In this document: positions 2,230 to 31,858 of the stretch, piece after piece | Position numbering within the stretch: position 1 is the stretch's first letter | How the letters are laid out: the number at the start of each line of letters is the position of its first letter | From: Desulfobacteraceae bacterium | Lineage (GTDB): Bacteria; Desulfobacterota; Desulfobacteria; Desulfobacterales; UBA2174 | Direction of reading: 5' to 3' | Length of the DNA stretch: 32,066 nucleotides | NCBI GenBank assembly: GCA_011042305.1 | Contig: DQXI01000147.1 | Coordinates: 1-32,066 of the forward strand | Position numbers and translations under genes: made by a program | Notes under the pieces: model-generated | Told to the model about the DNA's origin: nothing | The model's database searches: none | The model's input: only the letters and a program-made list of their open reading frames with translations

Positions 2230-2252
2230 CCGATCCACGGAAAGGAGGCGGC

Positions 2253-3530: not shown

Positions 3531-3564
3531 TCATTTTTTCAAGCGAGTCGAAAGGAGACGGCCC

Positions 3565-3963: not shown

Positions 3964-4034
3964 CGGACGGATAGCGGATCTGTCCGATAACCCAAAAGGC
4001 TTGATAAACCCCTCAAACCCGACAAGGGGGCGCC

Positions 4035-11237: not shown

Positions 11238-11246
11238 GCCTGCCGA

Positions 11247-11954: not shown

Positions 11955-11974
11955 GTTTTTTTGCCGACTTTTCG

Positions 11975-12772: not shown

Positions 12773-12773
12773 T

Positions 12774-13994
12774 CTACTTGTCCCCGCTGTCAGGTCCCTC
12801 GAACCGGTAGGTGCGGCGCACGTTGCTCACGATGCCGCCGGGCCGGAAGACCATCATTAGTACCAGGACACAGCCGAAAGTCAGGATGCGGTACTCGGCG
12901 AAGGCCCGCAGGTATTCGGGCAGCAACACCAGCACCAGGGCGCCTAGAATCACCCCCACGATGGAGCCCATGCCGCCCAGGACCACGATGCACAGAATGT
13001 TGATCGACTCCCAGAGGGTGAAGCTGGCCGGGTTGATGAAAGTGGTCTTGGCGGCGAAAATCACCCCGGCCAATCCGGCCCAGGTGGCTCCGAGGGCGAA
13101 GGCGGTGAGCTTGGTGCGCACCTTGTCCACCCCCATGGCCTGGCAGGCGATTTCGTCTTCGCGCAAGGCGAGCCAAGCCCGGCCGATGCGCGAGTTCTGC
13201 AGGCGGTTGACCATGAAGATGGTAAAGATCGTTATTAATACCACCAGAAAATAGATGTAGCGGGTGTGGGCCAGCAGGGAAAATTCGACCCCGAAAAAGC
13301 CGGGCCGGGGAATGTTGGAGATCCCGCTGGGGCCGAAGGAAAACTCGTTCCAGTTTTCCAAAATCAGGCGGATGATTTCACCGAAGCCGAGGGTGACGAT
13401 GGCCAGGTAGTCGCCCCGCAGCCGCAGCACGGGAAAACCCAGCAGAATGCCGAAGAGGGCCCCCAAGGCCGCCCCGATGGGCAGGCAGACCCAGAAATTG
13501 AGCCCGAAATGGTAGTTGAGCAGGGCGTAGGTATAGGCCCCCACGGCGTAAAAGGCCACGTAGCCCAGATCGAGCAGGCCGGCCACTCCCACTACGATGT
13601 TCAGCCCCAGGCCGAGCATGATGTACATGAAGGCCGTGGTCATGATGTTGATCTGGTACATCGAGACGAGAAAGGGAAACACCACCACCGCCAAGGCAGC
13701 TGCGGTGAGGGCCGGAAGAAAAATGCGCCGGTCTTCGCCGATGCGCTGGAAGATCGACACCCGGGGCCCGGCGCTTTCCCGCTGGCGCCGTACGCCCTGC
13801 TCCTTGCGCCGGATCAGGTAGCGCCAGACAAAGGAGAGCAGAAAACTGCCCACGCCGACGGCGATCATGTTGTTCCAGCGCCACTCGACGATGTTTTCCA
13901 CGGTGTTGACCCGGATGACCATGATGGGAAAGGTCAAAAACATGAACCAGATCGACACCAGGAACGATTTTCGGATTTCAACGAGAGACATCAT
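12774..13994 (-). CDS. livM: Branched-chain amino acid ABC transporter permease LivM
   Basis: MLGLGLNIVVGVAGLLDLGYVAFYAVGAYTYALLNYHFGLNFW...LRGDYLAIVTLGFGEIIRL; multi-TM; between livG and livH. Confidence 0.93.
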   Translation of the reverse strand: MMSLVEIRKSFLVSIWFMFLTFPIMVIRVNTVENIVEWRWNNMIAVGVGSFLLSFVWRYLIRRKEQGVRRQRESAGPRVSIFQRIGEDRRIFLPALTAAALAVVVFPFLVSMYQINIMTTAFMYIMLGLGLNIVVGVAGLLDLGYVAFYAVGAYTYALLNYHFGLNFWVCLPIGAALGALFGILLGFPVLRLRGDYLAIVTLGFGEIIRLILENWNEFSFGPSGISNIPRPGFFGVEFSLLAHTRYIYFLVVLITIFTIFMVNRLQNSRIGRAWLALREDEIACQAMGVDKVRTKLTAFALGATWAGLAGVIFAAKTTFINPASFTLWESINILCIVVLGGMGSIVGVILGALVLVLLPEYLRAFAEYRILTFGCVLVLMMVFRPGGIVSNVRRTYRFEGPDSGDK

Positions 13995-14018
13995 GGGAGG
14001 TTACCGTTTGCTCCGGTC

Positions 14019-14927
14019 CTAGACCTTCTGGGTTTCCGAGCGTCCCAGGATTCCCGACGGCTTAAAGATCAGGATCACCACCAGGAAGATGAAGGCGAAG
14101 ACGTCTTCATAGTCGCTGGAGATGTAGCCGGTGAAAAAACTCTCCGTCCAGCCGAGGACCAGGGCCCCCACCACGGCCCCGGGCACACTGCCGATGCCGC
14201 CGAGCACTGCGGCCACGAAGGCTTTGATGCCCGCGATGAAACCGATATAGAAGTTAATCTGCCCGATGTGCGAGGCGATGAGCACCGCACCGAGGGCCGC
14301 GGTGGCCGAGCCGATGACAAAGGTCATGGATATGACGCGGTTGACGTCCACTCCGGTCAGCATGGCCATCTCCCGGTCTTGACTGGTGGCGCGCATCGCC
14401 TTGCCCATGCGGGTGAACTTGATCAGCAGGTTCAGCAGGACCATGACAACGGCAGTGACCGTGATAATGACGATTTCCTGGCTGCTGATGATGTGGGCAT
14501 AAGGCTCCCAGAAGGCCAGGTCCGGCACGAGGCTGGGGAAGGGGAGAAAGTCGGAGGTTTGGGCCAGTAGCACATAGTTTTGCAGAAACAGCGACATGCC
14601 GATGGCGCTGATCAGGGCCGAGAGCCGCGGAGCGCCGCGCAACGGCTTGTAGGCGATCTTTTCCATGGTGAAACCGTAGCACGAGGAATAGACCACCGCG
14701 GCCACCGAGGCGATCACCAGTACGGCGAGGGTGGGGAAGCCGGCGAAGGTGAGCACCGTGGCGACGATCAGGCCGGTGAAGGCGCCGATCATGTAGATCT
14801 CGCCGTGGGCGAAGTTGATCAGTTCGATGATCCCGTAGACCATCGTATAGCCCAGGGCGATGAGGGCGTAGATGCTCCCCCGGGTCAGCCCCCCGAGAAA
14901 CAGTTCAGCGAAATATTGCAGATCCAT
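14019..14927 (-). CDS. livH: Branched-chain amino acid ABC transporter permease LivH
   Basis: MDLQYFAELFLGGLTRGSIYALIALGYTMVYGIIELINFAHGEIYMIGAFTGL. Start trimmed to 14927. Confidence 0.93.
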   Translation of the reverse strand: MDLQYFAELFLGGLTRGSIYALIALGYTMVYGIIELINFAHGEIYMIGAFTGLIVATVLTFAGFPTLAVLVIASVAAVVYSSCYGFTMEKIAYKPLRGAPRLSALISAIGMSLFLQNYVLLAQTSDFLPFPSLVPDLAFWEPYAHIISSQEIVIITVTAVVMVLLNLLIKFTRMGKAMRATSQDREMAMLTGVDVNRVISMTFVIGSATAALGAVLIASHIGQINFYIGFIAGIKAFVAAVLGGIGSVPGAVVGALVLGWTESFFTGYISSDYEDVFAFIFLVVILIFKPSGILGRSETQKV

Positions 14928-14975
14928 CGGCTTTGATCTGGCATCGCCCCGCGCCGGCAAAACGGGTGGGGCGGC

Positions 14976-15026
14976 TCAAAAAAACCAGGGGGAGGATCCG
15001 CTGACCGCGGTGTCCCCTCCCCCTGG
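14976..15026 (-). terminator. Intrinsic terminator/attenuator between livK and livH
   Basis: Perfect 11-bp inverted repeat CCAGGGGGAGG (14985-14995) / CCTCCCCCTGG (15016-15026); on the minus strand the stem is followed by TTTTTTTGAG. Confidence 0.85.
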
Positions 15027-15047
15027 AGACGAAGGGATTTTCGGTCA

Positions 15048-16166
15048 TTACTGGACTTCGACGTAAGCGCCGTTTTGCACCTGGTACATGGAAAAGCCGA
15101 CGCCGATGGCGTCACCACGCTCGTCGAAGTGAATTTTCCCCAGGGGGGTGTCCACCAGTTCGGTGCGCAGCGCGTTGACGATGGCATTGATGTCGTCGGT
15201 GCCGCCGGCTTTTTCAACGGCGTTGAGCAGGGCTTGGGCCGCTGCGTAGGCGTTCAAGAAGAAGGCGCCGGGTTCGGCGCCGTAGGTGTCCTGGTGGGCC
15301 TTGTTGGCGGCGATGGCCAGGGGGTTCTTGGAAACATCCTTGGGACCGGTGGCGTAGACGCCCTCGGCGTATTTCCCGGCTACCTTGATGAAGGTGTCGT
15401 CCTTGACGCCGTCATCGGAGATGAACACGGTGTCCATGCGTTTCTTGCGCATCTGGGTGACGATCTTGGAAGCTTCCGGGTGGTAGCCGCCGAAGATCAC
15501 TGCCTCGGCGCCCGAGCGCTTGATCTTCTGCACCACGGCCGAGTAGTCCACTGCACCGGGAGTGATCCCCTCGTAGAGCACCACTTCGGCCCGCGGGTCT
15601 TCCTCGAGGAATTTTTTGGCAAATTCCGCCAGCCCCTTGCCATAGTCGCCCTTGTCGTGGAGAACGGCGATCTTTTTCAGCTTGAGGGTATCCAGGGCAA
15701 AGTCCACCTCGAGTCGGGCCTGGGCGTCGTCGGAGGCGATGGTGCGGAAAAAGTAAGGATTTTCCCCGCTCTGGGTCAAATCCGGATTGGTGGCCGAGGG
15801 CGACATGGCGATGACCTGGGCCTTGTTGTAGATGCTCAGAGCCGCCTTGGTGGCACCGCTGCAGATGTGCCCCAGCACGATGCGCACCCCCTGGTCGACG
15901 AGCTTGGTGGCGGTGTTGGTGGCCACTTCGGGCTTGCATACGTCGTCTTCGACCACCAGTTCCACCTGCTTGCCGAGGATGCCGCCCTTGGCATTGATGT
16001 CCTTGACCACCAGCTCGGCGGCCTTGACGGTGGGCAGTCCGTAGGAGGCCAAGTCGCCGGAGTGGGCACCGCCCACACCGAGTTTGATGGTTTCAGCGGC
16101 GATGCCGGTGCCGGCGAACATCGCAACCAGGGCCACAACGGCGGCAAACAACACAAAACGCTTCAT
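15048..16166 (-). CDS. livK: Branched-chain amino acid ABC transporter periplasmic substrate-binding protein
   Basis: Signal peptide MKRFVLFAAVVALVAMFAGTGIAAETIKLGVGGAHSGDLASYGLPTVKAAELVVKDINAKGGILGKQVELVVEDDVCKPEVATNTATKLVDQGVRIVLGHICSGAT; type I periplasmic-binding fold, upstream of livHMGF. Confidence 0.93.
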   Translation of the reverse strand: MKRFVLFAAVVALVAMFAGTGIAAETIKLGVGGAHSGDLASYGLPTVKAAELVVKDINAKGGILGKQVELVVEDDVCKPEVATNTATKLVDQGVRIVLGHICSGATKAALSIYNKAQVIAMSPSATNPDLTQSGENPYFFRTIASDDAQARLEVDFALDTLKLKKIAVLHDKGDYGKGLAEFAKKFLEEDPRAEVVLYEGITPGAVDYSAVVQKIKRSGAEAVIFGGYHPEASKIVTQMRKKRMDTVFISDDGVKDDTFIKVAGKYAEGVYATGPKDVSKNPLAIAANKAHQDTYGAEPGAFFLNAYAAAQALLNAVEKAGGTDDINAIVNALRTELVDTPLGKIHFDERGDAIGVGFSMYQVQNGAYVEVQ

Positions 16167-16450
16167 GACCGATTCCTCCGTGTTTTTGGTTTTAAATCTT
16201 CCGCTCCGTTTGTAGCGGGGAGGGGGCCGGAGCAGCGTCAGGGCGCTCTGGCCTCTCTGCGGGGCCAACTGCTCAACCCAAGACGGAATTTTCCGATTCC
16301 CGGCGTATATAAACGGTTTAGAAGCCCCCGTCAAGGCGTAATACGGACGGGAAAAAACTGTTGCCGCATCGGTCCAATCCCGGTAGCATGCTTTGCTGAA
16401 GCTGCGTCAAGCACACTTGTTATCCCAACGGACCCGCGAGAAACGCTATC

Positions 16451-19650: not shown

Positions 19651-19774
19651 AAAATAATTTTGATTAATTCGATTAATGAACGTCACGTTCCCGCCTGGAA
19701 AAAATGCGGCAAGTGGGTCGGACCACGGTGAAGCGACACTTTCCCCGCTCGGAGTACACTGGAGGAGCACGCCG

Positions 19775-21208
19775 ATGAAAAACAGGCGGTGGGCGATGCT
19801 GCCGGTTTGGTTCATCCTGATGACGGCTTTTCCGGCGGCGGCGGCCGAGCATGCCACCGCGCACCCGGACCTGGGGCCGTCGATGCCTCTGTGGAGCTGC
19901 CTTCCCTTTGCCGGCATGTTGCTGTCCATCGCGTTGATGCCGCTGCTGCTGCCGCGGTTCTGGCACCATCATTTCGGCAAGGTTTCCGCCTTCTGGGCCG
20001 CCAGTCTGGCCGTTCCGTTTCTTTTGGTTTATCGAGGCAATGCCCTCTACGAAATCGTCCACATCCTCCTGGCTGATTACGTGCCGTTCATCATCCTGCT
20101 CTGGTCCCTGTACACCGTTTCCGGAGGGATTCTGCTCTCCGGCCGCCTTTCGGGAACGCCGCTGGTCAACACCCTCATGCTGGTCATCGGTACGGCCCTG
20201 GCCTCGTGGATGGGCACCACCGGTGCGGCCATGCTGCTGATCCGGCCGTTTTTGCGGGCCAACCACCACCGCAAGCAGCGCACCTTCATGGTGGTGTTTT
20301 TCATTTTCCTCGTGGCCAACATCGGCGGGGCCCTCACCCCCCTGGGCGATCCGCCGCTGTTTCTCGGCTTCCTTCACGGGGTGTCGTTTTTCTGGACATT
20401 CCAGATCATGCCCCACATGCTGCTGGCCGCCGGTCTGCTGCTGGTGACTTATTTCCTCCTGGACAGCTATTTTTACCGGCGTGAAAAACCGGCCGACCCG
20501 TCCGCCGGGGAAGGACAGGCCGCCTTGCGCATCGAGGGCATCCACAACTTTTTATTCTTGGCCGGCATAGTGGCGGCGGTGCTCTTCAGTGGGGTGGCCA
20601 AGTTGGGGGTGATTGATTTCTTCGGGGTCCATCGCGGGGTGCAGGACTATTTCCGCGACCTGTTGCTGATTATCATGGGGCTGCTGTCCATGGTCACCAC
20701 GCCCATCGAAACCCGCGAACGCAACGAATTCACCTGGTTTCCCATCATCGAGGTGGGCCTGCTGTTCATCGGCATCTTCATCACCATGATTCCCTGCCTG
20801 CTGATTCTCAAGGCCGGCAGCCAGGGGGCCCTGGCTTTTCTCATGGATACGGTCCGGAAGCCGTGCCATTATTTTTGGATCACCGGCTTGTTGTCCTCTT
20901 TTCTAGACAATGCGCCGACCTATTTGACCTTTTTCAACACGGCCATCGGCAGCTTCGCCGCCGGTTTGCCGGAACCGGAGGCCGTGGCGATCATGATGGG
21001 CGACAAGGCCGCCTACTTGAAAGCCATCTCCACCGGGGCGGTGTTTTTTGGCGCATGCACCTACATCGGCAACGCCCCCAACTTCATGGTGCGCTCCATC
21101 GCCGAGGAGGCCGGCACCCCCATGCCGAGCTTTTTCGGCTATATCCTGAAGTACAGCCTCGTGTTTCTTGTGCCCTGTTTCGCGCTGGTCAGTTTGCTTT
21201 TTTTCTGA
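19775..21208 (+). CDS. CitMHS/NhaD-like ion transporter (putative sodium:proton antiporter or citrate-transporter superfamily protein)
   Basis: About 12 hydrophobic helices; MGTTGAAMLLIRPFLRAN and FLVANIGGALTPLGDPPLFLGFLHGV; SSFLDNAPTYLTFFNTAIG; FGACTYIGNAPNFMVRSIAEEAG, typical of the IT superfamily NhaD/CitM/ArsB-like fold. Confidence 0.82.
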   Translation: MKNRRWAMLPVWFILMTAFPAAAAEHATAHPDLGPSMPLWSCLPFAGMLLSIALMPLLLPRFWHHHFGKVSAFWAASLAVPFLLVYRGNALYEIVHILLADYVPFIILLWSLYTVSGGILLSGRLSGTPLVNTLMLVIGTALASWMGTTGAAMLLIRPFLRANHHRKQRTFMVVFFIFLVANIGGALTPLGDPPLFLGFLHGVSFFWTFQIMPHMLLAAGLLLVTYFLLDSYFYRREKPADPSAGEGQAALRIEGIHNFLFLAGIVAAVLFSGVAKLGVIDFFGVHRGVQDYFRDLLLIIMGLLSMVTTPIETRERNEFTWFPIIEVGLLFIGIFITMIPCLLILKAGSQGALAFLMDTVRKPCHYFWITGLLSSFLDNAPTYLTFFNTAIGSFAAGLPEPEAVAIMMGDKAAYLKAISTGAVFFGACTYIGNAPNFMVRSIAEEAGTPMPSFFGYILKYSLVFLVPCFALVSLLFF

Positions 21209-21277
21209 CGCGGCGGGCAAAAGGCGTCGAACCGATTGGCCAAAAGTGGCAAAAAGGTGCTAATATTCGGTGATACG

Positions 21278-22168
21278 ATGAAATTCGAATCGATCTTGTT
21301 TCACACCCGTTTGCGTGAGGCGGCCTTCGAAAGTCTCCAGGCGGTGCTGCCCCTGAAGCCAGCCGGGCTGCGGCGGATCGTGCTGGTCTACGTCATCCGG
21401 CGCGAAGAGGTTGCTTTCGTGCCGTACGCGGGATTCGATAAGAAGGAGGCGGAACGCCAGCGCGCCGCGGCCGAGGAGCGTTTTGCCCACTGGGCCGAGG
21501 TGGTGGCCAAGTCCGGCATCGATTGTACGTGGCGCGTCGAGCTCGGCGAAACCAATCCGATTTTGATCAAAATCGCCGAAGAAGAGGCCGTTGATCTGAT
21601 CGTCACGGGACGCAAGTCGCGCACCGGTTTCGACCGGGTGTATGTCGGCTCCCACATCCTGGACATGGTCCGCCGTAGCCCGCTGCCGCTGCTGATGGCC
21701 AAGTACACGGCGCCCTACCAATTGGAGGACGGCCAGGTGGAAACCCGGATCAACAGCCGGCCGTTCGTTCGCCCCATGCTGGCCACCGACTGGTCGCCGC
21801 CCTCCGAGCGCGGGCTGGAGGCCCTCATCGCCTTGGGACCGGCGGTGGAAAAGGCCCTGGTGGTCCATGTGCTGGGCCGCAACGTGACCAAGAACGCCGA
21901 TGCCGACGCCATTGCGGCGCTGGAGAAGGAAAGCCGCAAGCGCCTGGACAGTGCCTGCGTCCGCCTGGCCGAGGCCGGGATCCAGGCCGAAGCGCTTCTG
22001 AGCAGCGGCCATGCGGCCGCCGAGATCGTGCATCTGGCCCGCGTGCACGAGGCCAGCCTCATCGTCATGGGGCGCACCGGCAAGGACTGGTTTCAGGAGT
22101 ACTGGCTTGGCGGGGTATCGCACCGGGTGGCGGAAACTGCGGAGCGCCCGGTCCTGGTGATCCCCTGA
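21278..22168 (+). CDS. Tandem-domain universal stress protein (UspA family)
   Basis: Two Usp-like repeats: ...EEEAVDLIVTGRKSRTGFDRVYVGSHILDMVRRSPLPLLMAKY and ...ARVHEASLIVMGRTGKDWFQEYWLGGVSHRVAETAERPVLVIP (G-2x-G-9x-G-type ATP motif in the second). Confidence 0.88.
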   Translation: MKFESILFHTRLREAAFESLQAVLPLKPAGLRRIVLVYVIRREEVAFVPYAGFDKKEAERQRAAAEERFAHWAEVVAKSGIDCTWRVELGETNPILIKIAEEEAVDLIVTGRKSRTGFDRVYVGSHILDMVRRSPLPLLMAKYTAPYQLEDGQVETRINSRPFVRPMLATDWSPPSERGLEALIALGPAVEKALVVHVLGRNVTKNADADAIAALEKESRKRLDSACVRLAEAGIQAEALLSSGHAAAEIVHLARVHEASLIVMGRTGKDWFQEYWLGGVSHRVAETAERPVLVIP

Positions 22169-22194
22169 GAGGCGATGAAAGGAAGCTGCCAGAG

Positions 22195-25100
22195 GTGAAG
22201 ACGGCGCGGCTCAAAGAGTTGTTGGGAGAACGGCTCGCCATCGTTGGCGGAGGGCGGTTTTGCCGCAATCTGCTGGCTTCTCTCACCGAGGCCGATGAAA
22301 CCCGGTGGCGCCCCCAGGTTGTTGCCGTGGCCGACCCGGACCCCGAGGCCCCGGGCCTCGGTCTGGCGCGCCAGCGGGGGATTCCGGTATTTTCCGACTA
22401 CCGGCAGATCTTCGACCTGCCCGGTCTCACCACGGTGATCGAAATCACCAACGATCCGTCTTTCAACGAGGTTTTGCAGCGCCAGCTGCCGGCCGGGGTG
22501 CGGCTCATCGACCATATCGACGTGCGGGTGGTCTGGGACGCCCTGCAGCTGGAAGCTCTGCGCTCGGAAACCCTGGCGCGGTTGCGGCAGCTTCCCGGCG
22601 TCACGCCGGCACTCGAGGCGCTGATTCGGGATCTTGCCAACCGTTTCTCCGCCATTGCCGAACGCCGCGGCAAGCACGCCTGCCAGATCGAGCGGGAGCT
22701 CTCGCGGCAGCAGCGGGCCCTGGCACAGATCGTCGAGGGCAGCACCATACCCACCTTCGTCATCGACGATAACCATGTGATTACCCACTGGAACCGGGCC
22801 CTGGAGTTGCTCACCGGGTGCCCGGCGGCGGAAAAAATCGGCACCCGTGAACAGTGGTCGCCGTTCTGGAAAGAGCCCCGGCCCTCGATGGCCGACGTTA
22901 TCCTCGACAGGCTCGGCCCGAAAGCCCTCGACAAGCTTTACGGCAGCCGGTGGCGCCCGTCGAGCCTGATCCCCGAGGGCTACGAGGCCGAGGTCCTCTT
23001 CCCCGGCCTGGGCGACGGCGGGCGCTGGTGCTGGTTTACCGCCGCGCCGATAAAGGCGGCCGACGGGCGGCTGATCGGGGCCATTGAGACGATCCAGGAC
23101 ATCACGGAGAAAAAACGCGCCGAGGAGGCCATCGAACGGCAGAACCGACGCCTGGTGGAAAGCGAGCGTTTCACGGCCCAGATTATCCAGGGCAGCACGA
23201 TTCCAACTTTTGTGATCAACCGCGATCACGTGGTCACCCACTGGAACCGGGCCCTGGAGCGGCTCACCGGGGTGCCGGCCGAGGAAATGGTGGGCACGTC
23301 GAACCACTGGAAACCGTTTCGCGGCAACCGGCGGCCCCTGATGGCCGACGTGATCGTCGACCAGCTCGATGAAGCCGAGATCCACCGCCTCTACGGGTCG
23401 CGCTGGCGACCGTCCACCCTCATCGAGGGGGCCTACGAAGCCGAGGAATTCCTCCCCCTGCTGGGTATCGAGGGAAAGTGGTGCTGGTTCACCGGATCGC
23501 CGATCAAGGATCCGGACGGGAACATCGTCGGTGCCATCGAAACCTTGCAGGACGTCACCGAGAAAAAGCGCAGCGAGGTACAGAGCCGGCGGCATACCCA
23601 GAAGCTGGCGGCCCTGTGCGGCATTCACGCCGCCCTGAACGCGCCCCTGAGCCTGGACGAATGCATCGATGCCGCCTTGAAGGAAGTCGGCAATTTCCTC
23701 AGCGCCGATTCCGTTTGCCTGTTCATGCTGGAGGAAGACGGCCGGCAACGGTTCATCAACTATCCGCGCCGAGGGCCCGATGGCGACGTCACCCCGGGCC
23801 GCTGCGGTGCCGATGACATGGTTTCCCGGGTGGCCAGCGACGGCAAGGTTCGCTTTTTCCGCTTCGCGTCCGACGATTTTCCGCCGGAGCTGAACAACCT
23901 GAAGGCGGCCGGAATCCGATCCGTGGCCTATATCCCGGTGGCCCCGGAGAAGGGTCGCATTTTCGGGGTGATCCGTATGGGCAGCCGGCGGGAAGACCAC
24001 CTCGACGAGGAAGACCTCTACGCCCTGGAGCTGATCGGCAACCGCATCGGGGCGACGGTGGAAAACGCCATGCTCAACGAGGAGCTGCGGCGCAAGAACA
24101 ACTTCCAGTCCAATCTGATCCGCAGCTCCACCGATGCCATCGTGGCCACCGACGAAGCGATGCGCATTGTCCTGTTCAACCCGGCGGCCGAGAGCCTCTT
24201 CGGCTACAGGAGAGATGAAGTCGTGCACCGGCGCCGCGCCTTCGACCTTTACCCGGACCAGGTGGAGGAGCTGTGGGACGCCGAGGAGGGCCGGGAGGGC
24301 CGATGGGAGTTTCCCTGGAAGGAAGTCACCATCACCCGCCGCGATGGGGAGGTGATCCCGGTGCGCTATTCGGGCACCTTGCTTCGCGAGGGCGAGCGGA
24401 TGATGGGCTCGGTGGCGTTCTTCCAGGACCTGCGCGAGATCAAGCGCTTGGAGGCGGAACTGCTTCAGTCCGAGCGGCTGGCGGCCGTCGGGCAGACCGT
24501 GGCCGGAATGGCCCACTGCATCAAGAACATTCTCCACGGGTTGAAGGGCGGCAGTTATATGATCGATGTCGGGCTGTCCAGGGACGACCGGGAGAAGCTG
24601 CAAACCGGCTGGCGGATGGTGCAGCGCAACATCAAGCGCACCTCGGACCTGGTGCTTGACCTGCTCTCCTACTCCAAGGAGCGGGAGCCCGATTACGCAC
24701 CGTGCAACCCCAACGAGGTGGTTCAAGACGTCTGTGATCTGGTGCGTGACGAGGCCCTCGAAAACGGGGTGGCGCTGGAGATCGAACTGGATCCGGCCAT
24801 CGGCCAGGTGGCCATGGACAGCCGTACGGTGCACCGCTGCCTGCTCAACCTGCTCACCAATGCCGTGGACGCCTGCGCCTTCGACGAAAACGCCAACAAG
24901 CGCCACAAAGTGCTGGTCCGCACGCTCTTGGCGCCGGATCAGCGAATCCGCTTCGAGGTCGCGGACAACGGCGTCGGTATGAGCGAAGAGGTCCGGCAGC
25001 GCCTGTTCACCTCGTTTTTCAGCACCAAGGGATCCCGGGGAACCGGCCTGGGGCTGCTTGTTACCCGCAAGCTCATCGAGGCTCACCGGGGAACCATCGA

Positions 25101-25227
25101 AGTGGTTTCGGAACTCGGCCGCGGTACCCGTTTTACTATTTACCTGCCATTTTTACCGGTGGCGCCGGGTGCCGGGGACGCCCATGTTCCCAAGGCCCCG
25201 GCCCCGAGCGAAGAGGGTGACCCATGA
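22195..25227 (+). CDS. Hybrid-architecture sensor histidine kinase: N-terminal Rossmann-like domain, PAS-PAS-GAF-PAS, HisKA-HATPase
   Basis: N-term LAIVGGGRFCRNLLASL...VVAVADPDPEAPGLGLARQRGIPVFSDYRQIFDLPGLTTVIEITND (dinucleotide-binding-like); paired PAS (STIPTFVIDDNHVITHWNRALELLTG / STIPTFVINRDHVVTHWNRALERLTG); H-box GMAHCIKNILHGLKGG; N-box LLNLLTNAVDAC; G1/G2 VADNGVGMSEE and GSRGTGLGLLVTRKLIEAHRG. GTG start. Confidence 0.92.
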   Translation: MKTARLKELLGERLAIVGGGRFCRNLLASLTEADETRWRPQVVAVADPDPEAPGLGLARQRGIPVFSDYRQIFDLPGLTTVIEITNDPSFNEVLQRQLPAGVRLIDHIDVRVVWDALQLEALRSETLARLRQLPGVTPALEALIRDLANRFSAIAERRGKHACQIERELSRQQRALAQIVEGSTIPTFVIDDNHVITHWNRALELLTGCPAAEKIGTREQWSPFWKEPRPSMADVILDRLGPKALDKLYGSRWRPSSLIPEGYEAEVLFPGLGDGGRWCWFTAAPIKAADGRLIGAIETIQDITEKKRAEEAIERQNRRLVESERFTAQIIQGSTIPTFVINRDHVVTHWNRALERLTGVPAEEMVGTSNHWKPFRGNRRPLMADVIVDQLDEAEIHRLYGSRWRPSTLIEGAYEAEEFLPLLGIEGKWCWFTGSPIKDPDGNIVGAIETLQDVTEKKRSEVQSRRHTQKLAALCGIHAALNAPLSLDECIDAALKEVGNFLSADSVCLFMLEEDGRQRFINYPRRGPDGDVTPGRCGADDMVSRVASDGKVRFFRFASDDFPPELNNLKAAGIRSVAYIPVAPEKGRIFGVIRMGSRREDHLDEEDLYALELIGNRIGATVENAMLNEELRRKNNFQSNLIRSSTDAIVATDEAMRIVLFNPAAESLFGYRRDEVVHRRRAFDLYPDQVEELWDAEEGREGRWEFPWKEVTITRRDGEVIPVRYSGTLLREGERMMGSVAFFQDLREIKRLEAELLQSERLAAVGQTVAGMAHCIKNILHGLKGGSYMIDVGLSRDDREKLQTGWRMVQRNIKRTSDLVLDLLSYSKEREPDYAPCNPNEVVQDVCDLVRDEALENGVALEIELDPAIGQVAMDSRTVHRCLLNLLTNAVDACAFDENANKRHKVLVRTLLAPDQRIRFEVADNGVGMSEEVRQRLFTSFFSTKGSRGTGLGLLVTRKLIEAHRGTIEVVSELGRGTRFTIYLPFLPVAPGAGDAHVPKAPAPSEEGDP

Positions 25228-25616
25228 CAAAAAAAGTGCTTGTGGTTGATGATGATCCTGATGTGCGACTGTTCAATATCACCGTCATCGAGGAGTGCGG
25301 CTACAGCGCCCTGGAGGCCGAAAACGGGGAGGAGGGATTGGCCAAGGTAAAGCAGGAACGCCCCGACCTGGTGCTGCTCGACGTGCTGATGCCGCGCCAG
25401 AGCGGCATTCGGCTTTACCGCGAGCTAAAAACCGATCCGGCCTTGAAGCAGATCCGGGTGGTGTTGCTTTCCGGCATCGCCGAAAAGACGTTTCTGCGAT
25501 CGCAAAAGGCCCTGACGGAATTCGGCGGCGCCGCAGTGCCCGAGCCGGAGCACTACCTGGAAAAGCCGGTGGAACCCGAAAAGCTGGCCCGGACGCTCAA
25601 GCAGATCCTCGGCTAG
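25224..25616 (+). CDS. Receiver-only response regulator (CheY-like)
   Basis: KVLVVDDDPDVRLFN...RPDLVLLDVLMPRQSGIRLYRELK...VVLLSGIAEK...YLEKPVEPEKLARTLKQILG; no output domain; ATGA overlap with the kinase. Confidence 0.93.
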   Translation: MTKKVLVVDDDPDVRLFNITVIEECGYSALEAENGEEGLAKVKQERPDLVLLDVLMPRQSGIRLYRELKTDPALKQIRVVLLSGIAEKTFLRSQKALTEFGGAAVPEPEHYLEKPVEPEKLARTLKQILG

Positions 25617-25669
25617 CCGATCGGCGTCGCCGCGCCGCAGGCTCGGTCGCGGCCCGGAAAGTGTGGGAC

Positions 25670-26557
25670 ATGGACATTCGCAAAATTCTCTTTGTCACCC
25701 AGTTCGAGGAATTGTGGTTCGACGCGTTGCAGTCGCTGCTCGACCTGAGGCGGGCCGCCCTGGAGCACGTGGTGTTTGTCAACGTGATCGAAAGGGAAAA
25801 GGTCACCATGCATCGCGGCACCGGCTACCAGAAGCGCGAGGCGATGCGGCTGCGCGAGAAGGCCAACATCCATTTCATCAACTGGGCCGAAGCCCTCTTC
25901 GAGCAAGGCCTCGAAGTGGGCGTGTACATCGTGGTGGGCGCCCTGGTGACCCGGGTGGTGGAAGCCGCCGCCAAGGAGGAGGCGGATCTGATTGTCCTGG
26001 GGGACCGCCGGCAAGGCGGTTTGAAGCAGTTTTACGCTGGCGAGGAGCTGGCCGAGATTGTCCGGCGCAGCAGGGTGCCGGTCATGCTGTACCGCTACGC
26101 CGGCGCCCGCCACGAGGCCCTGCCGCCGTTTCAACGGCCGCTGCTGGCCACCGACTGGGGGCCGGCCAGCCGGAACGCCGTGGCCTACCTGCGGCGCCTG
26201 CAGGCGGTGATCGAGGAGATCAACGTGGTCCACGTCGCCGACGAGAGACAGCTCCGGGGCGATTCCGCCATGACGATTCAAAAGACCCGCAAGGATGAGC
26301 GCGCCCGGCTGGAAGCCCTCTGCGAGCAGTTCGAGGGCGACGGCATCCCCGCCAGGGCCCATCTGGTGGTGGGCGAGCCGGCGGATCTGATCGTCAAGGC
26401 CGCCCGCCAGTGCCAGGCGACGATGATCGTCTCCGGCATTTCCACCCGCAGGGGATTCGGGGCGCGTTGGCGCGGCGGCACCTACCGGGCCATCGCGGAC
26501 AAGACGGATTTGACAACCCTCATCGTCCCGGTCCCCGCAACCGCTGAAGACCGATGA
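25670..26557 (+). CDS. Tandem-domain universal stress protein (UspA family)
   Basis: MDIRKILFVTQFEELWFDALQSLLDLRRAALEHVVFVNVIER...EADLIVLGDRRQGGLKQFYAGEELAEIVRRSRVPVMLYR; second repeat PLLATDWGPASRNAVAYLRRL...ATMIVSGISTRRGFGARWRGGTYRAIADKTDLTTLIVPV. Confidence 0.85.
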   Translation: MDIRKILFVTQFEELWFDALQSLLDLRRAALEHVVFVNVIEREKVTMHRGTGYQKREAMRLREKANIHFINWAEALFEQGLEVGVYIVVGALVTRVVEAAAKEEADLIVLGDRRQGGLKQFYAGEELAEIVRRSRVPVMLYRYAGARHEALPPFQRPLLATDWGPASRNAVAYLRRLQAVIEEINVVHVADERQLRGDSAMTIQKTRKDERARLEALCEQFEGDGIPARAHLVVGEPADLIVKAARQCQATMIVSGISTRRGFGARWRGGTYRAIADKTDLTTLIVPVPATAEDR

Positions 26558-26643
26558 AGCACTGGTTCAACAACGCCTGCGGAGGGACGGCAGCCGGCGG
26601 CAGGCCGGGGGGCTTTCCCCGCTGATCCAAACAGGAGGCATCG

Positions 26644-27258
26644 ATGGCGGTCATCACCATTTCCAGACAGTATGGCGCCGGCGGCCGGACCCTTGGCCGA
26701 ATGGTGGCGCAAAAGCTCGGCTACACGTTCGCCGACAGCGAGATCATCGAACGCCTGGCCACGGAAGCCCGGGTGTCGCCCCAGTGGGTCGAGTCCTTCG
26801 AGAAAGAGGCCGGCAGCCGCTTGTCGCGTTTCGTCTCCTCCATGGTGGCCAAGAAATGGGTCGACCGGGTTCTCAAGGACGAGCATGGCTACCTGGACGA
26901 GCAGTCCTACCTGGATTACCTGGTGCTGATCATCGCCCAGGTGGCCGACGAGGGCAACGTGGTCATTCTCGGGCGCGGCAGCCAGTACATTCTCAACGAC
27001 CATCCGGACGCCTACCACATCTTGCTGGTGGACGAGGCGGCCAACCGGATCAAATTCCTCATGGAGCGACAGGGGCACCCGGAAGCGAGAGCCGCGGCGC
27101 TGGTGGAATCGGAGGACCGTCGTCGTGCCAAGCTTTACGGGCGTTTGGGCAAGAGTGATTTCGACACGCCGCAGCTCTACCACTTGGTCATCAACATGGC
27201 CCGGTTGAGTCTGGATCGGGCCTGCGACCTGGTCTGCCGACTGTCGGGCGAATGTTGA
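26644..27258 (+). CDS. Cytidylate kinase-like family protein
   Basis: MAVITISRQYGAGGRTLGRMVAQKLGYTFADSEIIERLATEARVSPQWVESFE...VVILGRGSQYILNDHPDAYHILLVDEAANRIKFLMERQ; GxGGR in place of a canonical Walker A lysine. Confidence 0.82.
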   Translation: MAVITISRQYGAGGRTLGRMVAQKLGYTFADSEIIERLATEARVSPQWVESFEKEAGSRLSRFVSSMVAKKWVDRVLKDEHGYLDEQSYLDYLVLIIAQVADEGNVVILGRGSQYILNDHPDAYHILLVDEAANRIKFLMERQGHPEARAAALVESEDRRRAKLYGRLGKSDFDTPQLYHLVINMARLSLDRACDLVCRLSGEC

Positions 27259-27288
27259 AGATCGTTCACTTGCTTGACAGAATTTAAG

Positions 27289-27558
27289 ATGTTCGATTAC
27301 AAGAAGAACCGGGCTTGGGCGGAGAACCTTTCCATCGTTCTCCAGATCGGCCTGACCATGGTGGGCTGTGTCGCCTTCTGCTTTTTCGTGGGGCTCAAGC
27401 TGGACCGATGGCTGGGGCTCAAAGGAATCGGCGTCGCGGTGATGACGCTGCTCGGTGTGGTGGGCGGTGGCCACGTGGTCTATCGCCAGATCACCGAGTT
27501 GCTGGCCACCGGTGGCAACCACCGGGAAGGACCACCGCCGCCATCACGCAAGGATTAA
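27289..27558 (+). CDS. AtpZ/AtpI-like small membrane protein of an ATPase operon
   Basis: MFDYKKNRAWAENLSIVLQIGLTMVGCVAFCFFVGLKLDRWLGLKGIGVAVMTLLGVVGGGHVVYRQI: two TM helices, immediately upstream of Fo genes. Confidence 0.75.
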   Translation: MFDYKKNRAWAENLSIVLQIGLTMVGCVAFCFFVGLKLDRWLGLKGIGVAVMTLLGVVGGGHVVYRQITELLATGGNHREGPPPPSRKD

Positions 27559-27568
27559 GGTCTTCCAA

Positions 27569-27952
27569 ATGGGCGAAACGCTGCGTGACATCCAGAAGCG
27601 CTACGCGAGCCGGGCCTTGTATGTCGCCATGGCCCTGGGCGTCTGCCTCATGGTCGCCGGCTTCAAGCCGCTGGGGAAGGGATTGATCCTCGGGGCCCTG
27701 TTCAGCGGGCTGAATTTCGTGCTGCTGGGTGCACTGATTACCCGGCGGACGGCAGGCATGGGAGGGCGGCTGGCGGGGGTGGCGCTGCGGCTGGCGCTGA
27801 TGGCCGTGCCCCTGGTGACCGCTGTCAACTTGCCGTCCATCGACTTGTTGGGCGTGGTACCTGGCTTGTTCAGCGTGCCGGTGTTGATCCTGCTCGATGC
27901 CGGCGCGGGGTCGAGCGGAGCTTCCTCTGACCGGAGAATCCAGGAAGGATAG
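27569..27952 (+). CDS. atpI: AtpI/AtpR-like ATP synthase subunit I
   Basis: MGETLRDIQKRYASRALYVAMALGVCLMVAGFKPLGKGLILGALFSGLNFVLLGALITRR: multi-TM, positioned directly upstream of subunit a. Confidence 0.72.
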   Translation: MGETLRDIQKRYASRALYVAMALGVCLMVAGFKPLGKGLILGALFSGLNFVLLGALITRRTAGMGGRLAGVALRLALMAVPLVTAVNLPSIDLLGVVPGLFSVPVLILLDAGAGSSGASSDRRIQEG

Positions 27953-27955
27953 CAC

Positions 27956-28630
27956 ATGGGAGAGTTGGGGCGGATTCACCAATTGCTTGTTTCCATCGGC
28001 GATTACCGGCTGGCCATCAACCTGGAAGTGGTGGTGATGACCTGGATCGTCATTGCGCTCCTGGTGGTCTTCGGCCTGGCCACCAGCCGGCGGCGCAGCC
28101 TGCTGCCCCAGCCGATCCAGGTGCTGGGCGAAATTCTCGTCACCCAGCTCTACAACCTCACCGAAGACGCCCTGGGGGCCGACCTGGCACGCAAGTACGC
28201 GCCCCTGGTTTCGGCCCTGTTTCTCTTTCTGCTCGCCTCCAACTGGCTGGGGATCATTCCCCACCTGGAAGAGCCTTCCAAGGATCTCAACACCCCCTTG
28301 GCCCTCGGGCTGATGGGATTTGCCATCGCCCACTGGGCCGGGATCCGCTCCAAGGGGTTCAAAGCCTACATCCTGGAGTACTTCCAGCCGATCTTCTTCA
28401 TGATGCCGTTGAATCTGATCGGCGAGTTCGCCAAGATCGTCTCGATTTCCTTCCGTTTGTTCGGCAACATCATGGGCGGCTCGATCATTATCCTGGTGGT
28501 GTCCTACCTGTGCTGGAACATCCTGCTGCCGCCGCTGCTCTACGCCTTCTTCGGACTGTTTGTCGGGACGATCCAGGCCTTTGTGTTTACCATGCTTACC
28601 GTGGTCTACATCGCGGTCCAGGTGAAATGA
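27956..28630 (+). CDS. atpB: F-type ATPase subunit a
   Basis: FLLASNWLGIIPHLEEPSKDLNTPLALGLMGF...PLNLIGEFAKIVSISFRLFGNIMGGSIIILVV (essential Arg in SFRLFGN)...LFVGTIQAFVFTMLTVVYIA. Confidence 0.94.
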   Translation: MGELGRIHQLLVSIGDYRLAINLEVVVMTWIVIALLVVFGLATSRRRSLLPQPIQVLGEILVTQLYNLTEDALGADLARKYAPLVSALFLFLLASNWLGIIPHLEEPSKDLNTPLALGLMGFAIAHWAGIRSKGFKAYILEYFQPIFFMMPLNLIGEFAKIVSISFRLFGNIMGGSIIILVVSYLCWNILLPPLLYAFFGLFVGTIQAFVFTMLTVVYIAVQVK

Positions 28631-28633
28631 TCG

Positions 28634-29608
28634 ATGCAATGGAATCCTGAAACCATCGTGGCCGTGGCCGCTTACGCGGGGGCGGGGATCTGCATGGGGT
28701 TCGGGGCCGTGGGCGCCGCCATCGGCGAGGGCTACACTGCGGCCCAGGCCAACCATGCCGTTTCGCGCAACACCGATCTTTCCGGCGACGTCTTCAAAAA
28801 CATGCTGGTGGGGCAGGCGGTGGCCGAGTCGGCTTCCATCTTTGCCCTCGTCATCGCCATCCTGTTGATGTTCCTGAATTTCCAGGGGGCTCCGCTCATC
28901 AAGGCGCCCGCCCTCTTCGGGGCCGGCTTGTGCATGGGGCTGGGGGCCCTGGGATCGGGGATCGGCTCCGGGCTGCCCGGCGGCCAGGCCTGTTTCGGCA
29001 TTGCCCGCCAGCCGGCGGTGACCGGACGCCTCACCACCAACATGCTCATCGGCTCGGCGGTCTGCCAGACCCCTGCCATCTTTGCCATGGTGGTGGCCCT
29101 GCTGCTGATTTTCATCGACTTTAGTAGCGTGCCCCTGCGGCCGGGATGGGCGGCCCTTATCGGCGCCGGGCTCAGTACGGGGCTGGCGGCCATCGGCTCC
29201 GGCTACGGCGGCGGAGTGGCGGCCGGGGCGAGCTGCGAAGGGGTGGCGCGCCAGCCGCTGGCCGTGGCGCCGGTGACCACCACCATGCTGGTGGGGCAAG
29301 CCGTGGCCCAGACGCCGGCGATTTTCGGCCTCCTGGTGAGCTTCATCCTGCTGTTTCGCGGGATTCCGGCCTCCGAGAGCCTGGCCCCGGCCATGGCGTT
29401 GCTGGCGGCCGGCTTGTGCACCGGCCTCGGGGGGATCGGGCCGGGGATCGGCAACGGCCAGGTGGCCGGCGGCGCGGTACGCTGGGTGGCGCGCAATTCG
29501 GCCATCGCCACCGACCTGATGCGCGTCATGCTCGTGGGCCAGGCGGTGAGCCAGTCCACCGCCATCTATGCCATGGTGGTAAGCTTGGTGCTGATTTTTG
29601 TCGTCTGA
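28634..29608 (+). CDS. Fused four-hairpin F-type ATPase c subunit (tetra-proteolipid concatemer)
   Basis: Four tandem c-subunit repeats of 80-83 aa: 28634-28882, 28883-29122, 29123-29362, 29363-29605. Helix-2 cores: [14 protein letters not shown] / MLIGSAVCQTPAIF / [14 protein letters not shown] / MLVGQAVSQSTAIY. Confidence 0.92.
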   Translation: MQWNPETIVAVAAYAGAGICMGFGAVGAAIGEGYTAAQANHAVSRNTDLSGDVFKNMLVGQAVAESASIFALVIAILLMFLNFQGAPLIKAPALFGAGLCMGLGALGSGIGSGLPGGQACFGIARQPAVTGRLTTNMLIGSAVCQTPAIFAMVVALLLIFIDFSSVPLRPGWAALIGAGLSTGLAAIGSGYGGGVAAGASCEGVARQPLAVAPVTTTMLVGQAVAQTPAIFGLLVSFILLFRGIPASESLAPAMALLAAGLCTGLGGIGPGIGNGQVAGGAVRWVARNSAIATDLMRVMLVGQAVSQSTAIYAMVVSLVLIFVV

Positions 29609-29715
29609 GACGGCGGCCGATAAGGCGTCGAACCAGGGTGAAAACGGCCGGCCAAGGTGTGCATGAACATGAACTGGCCAAGAACCGGAAGTGACAATCC
29701 TCAAGGAGAAACGAA

Positions 29716-29964
29716 ATGGCTATCGAAGGTGCGGATCTGATCAAAGCGGCGGCTTTTTTGGGAGCAGGATTGGCAATGGGGCTGGGGGCCATCGGACCTG
29801 GCATCGGCGAGGGAATGACGGCGGCCAAGGCCTGCGAGGCCATCGGGCAAAATCCCAACGAGGCCGGGCTGCTGACCCGAACCATGCTGGTGGGGCAGGC
29901 GGTGGCCGAGTCCACCGGGATTTACTCCCTGGTGGTCGCCCTGCTGCTGCTTTTTGTCGTCTAA
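29716..29964 (+). CDS. atpE: F-type ATPase subunit c (single hairpin, 82 aa)
   Basis: [91 protein letters not shown] at 29703-29708. Confidence 0.95.
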
Positions 29965-29986
29965 CCTTTTTACGGGAGCGGCGAGG

Positions 29987-30442
29987 ATGGAAATCGTCTC
30001 GACCATCGCCTTGATCAGCATCAACGCCACCCTGGTGGTTCAGCTCGCGAGCTTTCTGCTGTTTCTGCTGATCATCAACCGGGTCATGTTCCGCCCCTTG
30101 CGCAACACGATGCGGGAGCGCGAATTCTTCATCGAGAATCTCGGCCGGGAGATCGAGGCCGCCGAGGGAGAGCGCGACCGGATCATGGACCTGCTAACAC
30201 GGCAGGAGCGGGACGTGCGCCAGGAGGCCGACAGGCTGCGGTGCGAGCGGCGCGACGAGGGGGCGGCGGAAGCCCGCCGCCTCGTTGACCGCGCCCTGGC
30301 GCAGATCGCGCAGATGCACCGGGACGCCGAGGCGGACGTGGCCCGCCAGATGGCCGAGGCGCGCCAGGGCACGGTCCAGGAAGCCGAGCGGATCTCGGTG
30401 GTGTTGATGGAAAAAGTGCTCGAGCGGAGGATCGAATCATGA
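29987..30442 (+). CDS. atpF: F-type ATPase subunit b (first b-type stalk subunit)
   Basis: N-terminal TM ALISINATLVVQLASFLLFLLIINRVMFRPL followed by a long charged coiled coil. Confidence 0.85.
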   Translation: MEIVSTIALISINATLVVQLASFLLFLLIINRVMFRPLRNTMREREFFIENLGREIEAAEGERDRIMDLLTRQERDVRQEADRLRCERRDEGAAEARRLVDRALAQIAQMHRDAEADVARQMAEARQGTVQEAERISVVLMEKVLERRIES

Positions 30443-31029
30443 GGGTGCCAGCGGAGACCAGGCGAACATGGGCAGCGGCAATTCTCGGGGTTGCGGCAAT
30501 GGCGGCCTGTGCCGATCCCCTTTGGGCGGCGGAGGCCTCCGCCGACTGGCGCCCCACCTACGACCTGGTGATGCGCTGGGTCAACTTCGGCATCCTCGCC
30601 GGGCTGATCTTCTATTTCGGGCGGCGCCCGGTGGCCAACCTGCTCACCACCCAGGCGGCCAGACACGCGGAACGGATCCGGCAGTTTGAGGCGCAGCGTG
30701 ACGCGGCCCTGGAACGGCTCGCCGAGGTGCAGCGGCTGCAACAGGAGCACCAGGACCGCCTGGAGGTAATCCGGCAGCGGATTGTCGCCGAGGGAGAACG
30801 GCAGCGCGAGGCCCTCATCGAAGAGGGCCAAAGGGAAGGGGAGATGCTGATTGCCCAGGCTCACAGACGGATCGGTTTGGCGTTGCGTGACGCCAGGGCA
30901 CAGTTGCGCAACGAGATGGTGGACCTGGCTGTGGAGCGGTCCCTGGAAAAGTTGCCGGCGCTGGTGACGCCGCAGGACAACGAAGCGCGCGTGGCGCATT
31001 TCTTCAAGGCGGTCCAGCGGGTTCAGTGA
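30439..31029 (+). CDS. F-type ATPase subunit b (second b-type stalk subunit, with signal-like N-terminus)
   Basis: MRVPAETRRTWAAAILGVAAMAACADPLWAAEA...YDLVMRWVNFGILAGLIFYFGRRPVANLLTTQAARHAERIRQFEAQRDAALERLAEVQRLQ; ATGA overlap with the preceding gene. Confidence 0.88.
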   Translation: MRVPAETRRTWAAAILGVAAMAACADPLWAAEASADWRPTYDLVMRWVNFGILAGLIFYFGRRPVANLLTTQAARHAERIRQFEAQRDAALERLAEVQRLQQEHQDRLEVIRQRIVAEGERQREALIEEGQREGEMLIAQAHRRIGLALRDARAQLRNEMVDLAVERSLEKLPALVTPQDNEARVAHFFKAVQRVQ

Positions 31030-31050
31030 CCGCGGCAGAGCCGCCTTTAT

Positions 31051-31086
31051 CGCAAAACGCCCGGTTGCCAAACCGGGCGTTTTGCG
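31051..31086. terminator. Strong stem-loop at the end of the Fo operon
   Basis: Perfect 16-bp inverted repeat with 4-nt loop: CGCAAAACGCCCGGTT-GCCA-AACCGGGCGTTTTGCG. Confidence 0.85.
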
Positions 31087-31156
31087 TTATGGGGCGATGC
31101 GTCTAGAATCTAAAACGCCGCTGTGGGATGGGGCGGCTCTATCGGAGGGGAAGCGG

Positions 31157-31858
31157 ATGAACGAGGATCAAAACGGGTCCGAGCGGTTGTTCAAGGACCA
31201 CGTGGAAAAGTGGCGTCAGCGGGTTCTGGCGTCCCCGAAAGCCATGGGGGCGGCCGACAGGGTGATCACCATGAGCATGGAGCCGGGCAGCGGTGGACGG
31301 ATCATCGCCGAAAAGCTCGCTCAGCGTCTCGGTTTCGACCTGTTCCACCGGGAGATCATCAAGGCCATCGCCAAAAGCAGTCGGATGTCCGCCAGCGTCA
31401 TCGACACGGTGGAAAAGGAGCGGCTCAGCGGGCTGGAGGATTTCCTGTCTTCCCTGATCCGCAAGAAGTACTTTCACCCGGGATCATACCAGCATCACCT
31501 GTTCAAGGTCATCGGCACGGTGGCCCGCCACGGGCGAGTGGTGATTGTCGGCCGGGGCGCCAACTTCATCCTGCCGCCGGCCGAGCGCCTGGCCGTACGC
31601 GTCATCGCGCCGCTGGAAACGCGCATCCGCAACGTGGCCAGGGGGTATGGATGTACCCTGGAGGTGGCCGAAAAACGGGTTCGCCAGCGCCAGGCCCGCC
31701 GGCGCGATTTTGTCCGCCAGGCCTTTCACCAAGACATCGACAAACCGCACCACTACGACCTGGTCGTCAACACCGGGCAGCTTTCCCTGGATACGGCCGT
31801 CGAGGCGATCCTGGCCGTTCATGCCCACCGCAACGGTGACGGGCGCCCGCCAGCTTGA
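31157..31858 (+). CDS. Cytidylate kinase-like family protein (second copy, divergent)
   Basis: RVITMSMEPGSGGRIIAEKLAQRLGFDLFHREIIKAIAKSSRMSASVIDTVEKERLSGLEDFLSSLI...RVVIVGRGANFILPPAERLAVRVIAPLETRIRNVA; collinear with the 26644-27258 product. Start trimmed to ATG 31157. Confidence 0.8.
   Translation: MNEDQNGSERLFKDHVEKWRQRVLASPKAMGAADRVITMSMEPGSGGRIIAEKLAQRLGFDLFHREIIKAIAKSSRMSASVIDTVEKERLSGLEDFLSSLIRKKYFHPGSYQHHLFKVIGTVARHGRVVIVGRGANFILPPAERLAVRVIAPLETRIRNVARGYGCTLEVAEKRVRQRQARRRDFVRQAFHQDIDKPHHYDLVVNTGQLSLDTAVEAILAVHAHRNGDGRPPA

What the first reader, a model, noticed from the sequence alone, without database searches (positions are those of the whole stretch)
28634..29608. Four-hairpin fused ATPase c subunit with a carboxylate in only one of its four hairpins
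Seen in sequence: one 324-aa ORF contains four complete c-type hairpins. Hairpin 1 keeps E32 (GEG) and E65 (AVAESAS; GAG codon 28826-28828). Hairpins 2, 3 and 4 have Gln at the E65 position (CAG codons 29066-29068, 29309-29311, 29552-29554) and S/G/N at the E32 position. Established: V-type c subunits are two-hairpin duplications with one carboxylate, and Acetobacterium woodii mixes a duplicated c1 with single c subunits in a Na+ F-ATPase. Inference: this rotor subunit would span four hairpins with one ion site, and the Glns may act as permanently neutral mimics. That would sharply lower the ion/ATP ratio and favour ATP-driven ion pumping (steep gradients) over ATP synthesis.
Basis: partly seen in the sequence, partly recalled or inferred. 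Interest (0 to 1): 0.9.

Follow-up and report, generated by a model that had tools for sequence, protein, structure and literature searches.

The report
Four-unit sodium rotor with one site
This sulfate-reducer-type bacterium, like many of its relatives, carries a spare membrane motor for its single ATP-making/ATP-burning head, and one rotor part of that motor is four rotor units joined in one chain with only the first able to carry an ion; this suggests a natural low-ratio 'gear' for pumping sodium, which has not yet been tested at the bench.

Summary
ORF 28634-29608 (324 aa) holds four complete c-type hairpins: E32/E65 in hairpin 1, and Q at the carboxylate position (S/G/N at the inner position) in hairpins 2-4. 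It is not an assembly artefact or a decaying gene: homologues fill 80 named loci including isolates, pN/pS is low in every hairpin, and 102/102 four-hairpin proteins keep E65 in hairpin 1 and Q in hairpin 2. Inner and outer acids are kept or lost together. The family runs from 2 to 6 hairpins per chain (E-Q up to E-Q-Q-Q-Q-Q), always beside a single-hairpin c with the Fusobacterium nucleatum Na+ signature. The nearest solved relative is the Acetobacterium woodii two-hairpin c1 (E-Q; 4bem_J). The gene lies in an Fo-only operon (Q-R-a-c4-c-b'-b) without F1. In 25/25 tested carrier genomes the number of Fo a-subunits is F-type F1 + 1; in 15/15 non-carriers it equals F1. In other orders the same Fo heads the standard F1 operon. 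Best reading: an extended F/V-hybrid Na+ rotor, a second Fo for a shared F1, with a lowered ion/ATP ratio favouring ATP-driven pumping. New variant of a known kind; ring composition, ion and direction are untested.

The parts
28634..29608 (+). fused c subunit (c4), 324 aa, four hairpins, E-Q-Q-Q
28661..28879 (+). hairpin 1: E32 (28727 GAG), E65 (28826 GAG), S66, A67, F70; the only carboxylate-bearing hairpin
28901..29119 (+). hairpin 2: S at the inner position, Q145 (29066 CAG), T, P
29144..29362 (+). hairpin 3: G at the inner position, Q226 (29309 CAG), T, P
29387..29605 (+). hairpin 4: N at the inner position, Q307 (29552 CAG), S, T, Y
29716..29964 (+). single-hairpin c subunit with full two-carboxylate Na+ signature (E32 V63 E65 S66 T67 Y70)
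27956..28630 (+). Fo a subunit; essential Arg kept in SFRLFGN
   Evidence: PF00119 E 8e-49
27274..27558 (+). AtpQ/AtpI-like (PF09527)
27569..27952 (+). AtpR/AtpI-like (PF03899, below cut-off); start inferred from relatives
29987..30442 (+). Fo b' subunit (PF00430); ORF opens at 29954, ATG start inferred from relatives
30439..31029 (+). Fo b subunit (PF00430)
26644..27258 (+). cytidylate-kinase-like gene upstream (PF13189), neighbour in a minority of loci
31082..31858 (+). cytidylate-kinase-like gene downstream (PF13189), neighbour in a minority of loci

Best explanation
The gene encodes an extended F/V-hybrid rotor subunit. It is part of a second, Na+-type Fo module (a, c4, c, b', b) that docks on the cell's single F1, alternating with the housekeeping a-c rotor. 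In the membrane ring, c4 contributes one ion site (hairpin 1) and three neutral hairpins in which Gln replaces Glu, and single c subunits supply the other sites. Fewer ions therefore cross per turn, so ATP hydrolysis can build a steeper Na+ gradient than a ring with a site in every hairpin could. The long neutral arc should also make ion-driven (synthesis-direction) rotation difficult. Shown here by sequence: the pattern, its conservation, the co-encoded c, the missing F1, and the one-extra-Fo gene count. Inferred: mixed ring, Na+ as the ion, docking on the shared F1, low ratio, pumping direction.
For: Four hairpins with E-Q-Q-Q. Purifying selection in all four hairpins: pN/pS 0.04-0.07 at 97% identity, 0.18-0.27 at 84%. 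Inner and outer acids coupled in fused hairpins: E/E 148, other/Q 254, other/E 6, E/Q 0; Q hairpins keep V63 and S/T66, the ligands a neighbour supplies in the F. nucleatum site. Closest solved chain is A. woodii c1, E-Q in the same order, present once beside nine F-type c chains in 4bem; best fold match is also 4bem_J. Clostridium aceticum has the same Q....ET / Q....QT layout and is credited with a reduced Na+/ATP ratio (PMC7911925). The single c has E32, E65, S66, T67 and Y70 in 118/118 and V63 in 116/118 members, the F. nucleatum Na+ ligand set (PMC3692424). Seven-gene order Q-R-a-c4-c-b'-b in nearly all of 80 loci, no F1 gene within the flanks fetched. Count of a = F1 + 1 in 25/25 carriers and = F1 in 15/15 non-carriers. 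In other orders the same Fo heads a full b'-b-delta-alpha-gamma-beta-epsilon operon, and four such genomes hold one b'b pair and one F1 but two a-c sets. a-subunits of this Fo form one group (96*) with Arg kept.
Against: No biochemical or expression data. F1 sharing is inferred from gene counts only; draft genomes could hide a gene, though completeness is high and G011, G060, G317 and G366 are single contigs. A single E56Q in a fused c10 ring of Bacillus PS3 abolishes synthesis, pumping and DCCD-sensitive hydrolysis (PMC8809890), so three neutral hairpins in a row would have to be tolerated by special adaptation. Hairpin 1 lacks T67 and Y70 (A, F). A Na+ motif does not guarantee Na+ coupling: Sporomusa ovata ATPase activity was not stimulated by Na+ despite the motif (PMC9430772). 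About 44% of four-hairpin relatives keep a second carboxylate in hairpin 4.
Confidence: 0.6

Rival explanations
1. Ring-composition device: one c4 per ring fixes ring size or seeds assembly, as A. woodii c1 occurs once per ring. The effect on ion/ATP ratio is moderate (about 8 sites in 11 hairpins) and the enzyme still makes ATP when the Na+ gradient is high.
For: 4bem holds one c1 and nine c2 chains; the hybrid A. woodii enzyme conserves energy at 3.3 Na+/ATP (PMC7793690); a full-site c is co-encoded in nearly every locus; in G071, G196, G060 and G213 this Fo heads the only standard F1 operon.
Against: Five neutral hairpins in a row (c6) is far beyond what assembly alone needs, and would leave roughly half of an 11-hairpin ring unable to be driven by ions.
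Confidence: 0.22
2. Fo working without F1: a regulated Na+ channel or another membrane device made from Fo parts, not coupled to ATP.
For: No F1 gene in the operon in any of the 80 loci of this order's kind.
Against: In other lineages the same Fo is in one operon with a full F1; b and b' are kept; a bare ring with a neutral arc could not turn freely past the stator (inference).
Confidence: 0.1
3. Relic: a duplicated, decaying Fo whose extra hairpins lost their sites by neglect.
For: Loss of carboxylates in three of four hairpins.
Against: Low pN/pS in every hairpin, equal conservation of all four hairpins (0.68-0.71), Gln in hairpin 2 in 102/102 and coupled loss of inner and outer acid; operon kept intact.
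Confidence: 0.03

Closest known systems
Acetobacterium woodii / Clostridium aceticum F/V-hybrid Na+ rotor (subunit c1 with c2/c3)
   Same: Fused c with Glu in hairpin 1 and Gln-Thr after it; co-encoded single-hairpin c with Na+ motif; best sequence and fold match (4bem_J; PMC7911925).
   Different: Two hairpins there, four here (2-6 in the wider family); inner residue Glu32 here instead of Gln; operon here lacks F1 and is a second Fo in a genome with one F1.
Fusobacterium nucleatum two-carboxylate Na+ c ring (3zk1, PMC3692424)
   Same: E32 + E65 with V63, S66, T67, Y70: all present in the single c; E32, E65, S66 and V/I63 in c4 hairpin 1.
   Different: One hairpin per chain, all sites active; T67 and Y70 are A and F in c4 hairpin 1.
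V-type c/K subunits (Enterococcus hirae NtpK 2bl2, eukaryotic proteolipid)
   Same: Fused hairpins with one carboxylate per chain; lowered ion/ATP.
   Different: Two hairpins; the acid lies in the last hairpin (own knowledge, E139 in NtpK), here in the first; partner a subunit and operon are F-type.
Archaeal multi-hairpin c (Methanocaldococcus jannaschii 3, Methanopyrus kandleri 13 hairpins; PMC2359735)
   Same: More than two hairpins per chain.
   Different: Archaeal enzymes; M. kandleri keeps the full site in all 13 hairpins.
Ectopic duplicated Fo of Desulfococcus oleovorans (PMC4154653)
   Same: Probably a member of this same orphan Fo group: a, c, b', b without F1.
   Different: Reported as a single-species case, possibly transferred from Thermotogae; no fused or Gln-bearing c described in the passages read. 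Not compared directly here.
Desulfatiglans-related MAGs, NaphS2 and D. anilini with 2-4 atpE copies (PMC13343851)
   Same: Multiple c genes in related sulfate reducers, linked there to hybrid rotors.
   Different: Copies only counted; hairpin number, Gln pattern and the F1 shortage not described in the passages read; ion specificity left unresolved.

Membership tests
F/V-hybrid rotor (A. woodii type) | F-type single-hairpin c and fused c encoded side by side | tested here: met
F/V-hybrid rotor (A. woodii type) | Carboxylate in hairpin 1, Gln in the following hairpin | tested here: met
F/V-hybrid rotor (A. woodii type) | Fused c has two hairpins (four helices) | tested here: not met
   four hairpins; two-hairpin members exist in relatives (L162, L163)
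F/V-hybrid rotor (A. woodii type) | Both c types in one complete F1Fo operon | tested here: not met
   no F1 genes in the window operon; met in L156, L158, L161, L164 of other orders
F/V-hybrid rotor (A. woodii type) | Both c types present in one ring | not testable with these tools
   needs purification
Na+-type c subunit (two-carboxylate) | E32, V63, E65, S66, T67, Y70 | tested here: met
   for the single c: E32, E65, S66, T67, Y70 in 118/118 and V63 in 116/118; c4 hairpin 1 lacks T67 and Y70, so only partly for c4
V-type c/K subunit | Carboxylate in the last hairpin; V/A-type operon | tested here: not met
   E in hairpin 1; neighbours are F-type a, b, b'
N-ATPase | Own alpha, beta, gamma, epsilon in order D-C-Q-R-B-E-F-A-G; N-type a subunit | tested here: not met
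   no F1 genes; a subunit groups apart from N-type a; only the Q-R-B-E order is shared

The most novel reading that the evidence does not exclude
One F1 is served by two exchangeable Fo motors: a housekeeping one and a low-ratio Na+ one whose fused c carries a long blind arc (up to five neutral hairpins). The cell can thus change gear, and the blind arc acts as a one-way clutch that allows ATP-driven pumping but blocks ion-driven rotation, and blocks leak when the Fo is undocked.
Probability: 0.35. Interest if true: 0.95.

Novelty: new variant of a known kind. Interest (0 to 1): 0.8.

Why it matters
Rotary ATPases set the ion/ATP exchange rate by the number of ion sites in the ring. Ordinary F-type rings have one site per hairpin; the A. 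woodii type has one hairpin without a site. Here nature offers a graded series (2, 3, 4, 5, 6 hairpins per chain; one, two or three sites per chain) in which sites are removed in register, in F-type enzymes, where one E-to-Q change kills a laboratory ring (PMC8809890). That makes directly testable how far a rotor can be neutralised, whether a ring with a blind arc can still make ATP, and whether one F1 can serve two Fo motors. It also bears on how marine sulfate reducers handle Na+.

Tried and rejected
Misassembly or repeat collapse: rejected, the same length and pattern recur in independent and isolate genomes and TRF finds no DNA tandem array here. Decay: rejected. N-ATPase: rejected. A second F1 elsewhere belonging to this Fo: not found in 25 genomes by counting. 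Promoter/terminator scan of 26500-31200: no sigma-70-like site, terminator-like sites near chance. Fold of the c4-c gap: no structure beyond chance, z -0.10. Plasmid collection: only distant single-hairpin hits. A first parse of hairpin columns gave wrong residues because insert columns were miscounted; redone correctly. Whole-genome download, the A. woodii structure paper (PMC4228694) and the Brandt & Muller 2015 survey of hybrid rotors were not available, so that survey may already list some members.

Full report
OBSERVATION. The ORF at 28634-29608 translates to 324 aa. Pfam ATP-synt_C matches it four times (E 7.5e-60). The four hairpins align without gaps over 73 residues each. AlphaFold2 on 33 relatives gives an all-helical model with four hairpins, pLDDT 94.9, pTM 0.90.

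IS IT REAL? A scan of 85,462 species genomes returned 80 kept loci, nearly all 324 aa, from Desulfobacterales MAGs and isolates. Between the window and a 97%-identical relative, pN/pS is 0.059 over the gene and 0.036-0.073 in each hairpin; at 84% identity it is 0.18-0.27. All four hairpins are about equally conserved (mean pairwise identity 0.71, 0.69, 0.68, 0.68). The neutral hairpins are not decaying.

THE PATTERN. In 102 distinct four-hairpin proteins hairpin 1 has E65 in all and hairpin 2 has Gln in all. Hairpin 3 has Gln in 95 and Glu in 7; hairpin 4 has Gln in 57 and Glu in 45. The inner acid goes with the outer one: E/E 148, other/Q 254, other/E 6, E/Q 0 (Fisher p about 1e-105, a figure that ignores shared ancestry). 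On the tree the state of hairpin 4 changes at least 3 times and that of hairpin 3 at least 3 times. Gln hairpins keep V63 and Ser/Thr66; in the F. nucleatum ring those two are ligands given by the adjacent subunit (PMC3692424).

A GRADED FAMILY. In 396 genomes sampled over the phylum, 43 have a strong match. Chains of 2 (E-Q, E-E), 3 (E-Q-Q), 4, 5 (E-Q-Q-Q-Q, E-Q-Q-Q-E) and 6 hairpins (E-Q-Q-Q-Q-Q) occur. The 576-aa frame holds six hairpins behind an N-terminal stretch that is probably only upstream open frame. Nearly every examined locus also has a single-hairpin c with E32/E65 beside it.

NEIGHBOURS. The order atpQ-atpR-a-c4-c-b'-b is found in 77-80 of 80 loci per gene, the gaps being mostly contig ends. 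No delta, alpha, gamma, beta or epsilon gene lies in the fetched flanks; one weak beta hit in L103 (27 bits) is not an F1 beta. The own genome has F1 (b'-b-delta-alpha-gamma-beta-epsilon) on contig C20 and a housekeeping a-c pair on C68. The a subunit here keeps the essential Arg, and a-subunits of this Fo form one group apart from housekeeping and N-type ones (96*; quick tree, long branches to the outgroup).

ONE F1, TWO Fo. In 25 carrier genomes I counted F-type F1 alpha/beta pairs (flagellar FliI-like and V/A-type hits set aside by length, score and pairing, which is a judgement) and Fo a subunits: a = F1 + 1 in all 25. In 15 genomes of the order without the fused c, a = F1 in all (in G006 only one subunit of the pair was found). 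In other orders the same Fo is joined to F1 in one operon (L156, L158, L161, L164). In G071, G161, G196 and G213 there is one b'b pair and one F1, while a second a-c pair stands alone elsewhere. So both rotors must share F1, and there also the stator, unless one of them is not part of an ATPase at all.

MECHANISM (inference). By analogy with 4bem (nine single c plus one two-hairpin c1, i.e. 11 hairpins and 10 sites; 3.3 Na+/ATP, PMC7793690), one c4 E-Q-Q-Q in an 11-hairpin ring would leave 8 sites, 2.7 ions/ATP; E-Q-Q-E 9 sites, 3.0; c6 6 sites, 2.0. A ring of three c4 alone would give 1.0. Successive sites across c4 would be about 131 degrees apart. F1 can carry the ring across such an arc by hydrolysis; an ion gradient cannot push it across directly. 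Hence the enzyme should work best as an ATP-driven pump, probably for Na+, given the ligand set of the single c. Against this, A. woodii makes ATP with one neutral hairpin, and the Na+ motif does not always mean Na+ coupling (PMC9430772).

WHAT IS KNOWN. Two-hairpin hybrid rotors are known (A. woodii, C. aceticum). Archaeal three- and thirteen-hairpin c are known (PMC2359735). A duplicated Fo in Desulfococcus oleovorans was noted once (PMC4154653), and multiple atpE copies were noted in Desulfatiglans relatives (PMC13343851). I found no paper in the held library describing F-type c of three or more hairpins with Gln in series, or the one-F1/two-Fo count. From memory, Brandt & Muller 2015 list twelve species with an F-type plus a V-type c in one operon; that paper could not be read here. 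Verdict: new variant of the F/V-hybrid rotor kind.

Noticed in passing
window 19676-21208: NhaD/ArsB-like Na+/H+ antiporter-type membrane protein upstream on the same strand; the same gene lies near the c4 operon in L054, L059, L101 and L126, which fits a Na+ role. Name is from sequence resemblance, not from a family search.
   Followed up: partly
window 21236-26557: Block of two universal-stress-type proteins, a PAS-type histidine kinase and a response regulator directly before the operon; HK/RR/USP recur near c4 in about 11-16 of 80 loci, hinting at stress control.
   Followed up: partly
window 26644-27258 and 31082-31858: Two cytidylate-kinase-like genes (PF13189) flank the Fo operon on both sides; each recurs beside it in 18-19 of 80 loci. 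Purpose unknown.
   Followed up: no
L162 9165-9653: Two-hairpin c with both sites intact (E-E), and its a subunit is near the base of the group: possible early stage of the fusion series.
   Followed up: partly
L155 7134-10961: Reordered operon: c4 (E-Q-E-E) lies after b, not before the single c.
   Followed up: no
G037:C16:6574-7542 (L023) and G037:C29:1107-2075: One genome carries two separate four-hairpin c genes.
   Followed up: no
L124 7339-13963 (G011): A complete N-type ATPase operon coexists with the c4 Fo and the housekeeping enzyme, so this genome has three Fo a subunits and two F1.
   Followed up: partly
window 1935-7533 and 11197-16334: Looks like a glycine cleavage cluster (GcvT, GcvH, GcvPA, GcvPB) with a LipB-like gene, then a branched-chain amino acid ABC transporter set on the other strand; by eye only.
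   Followed up: no
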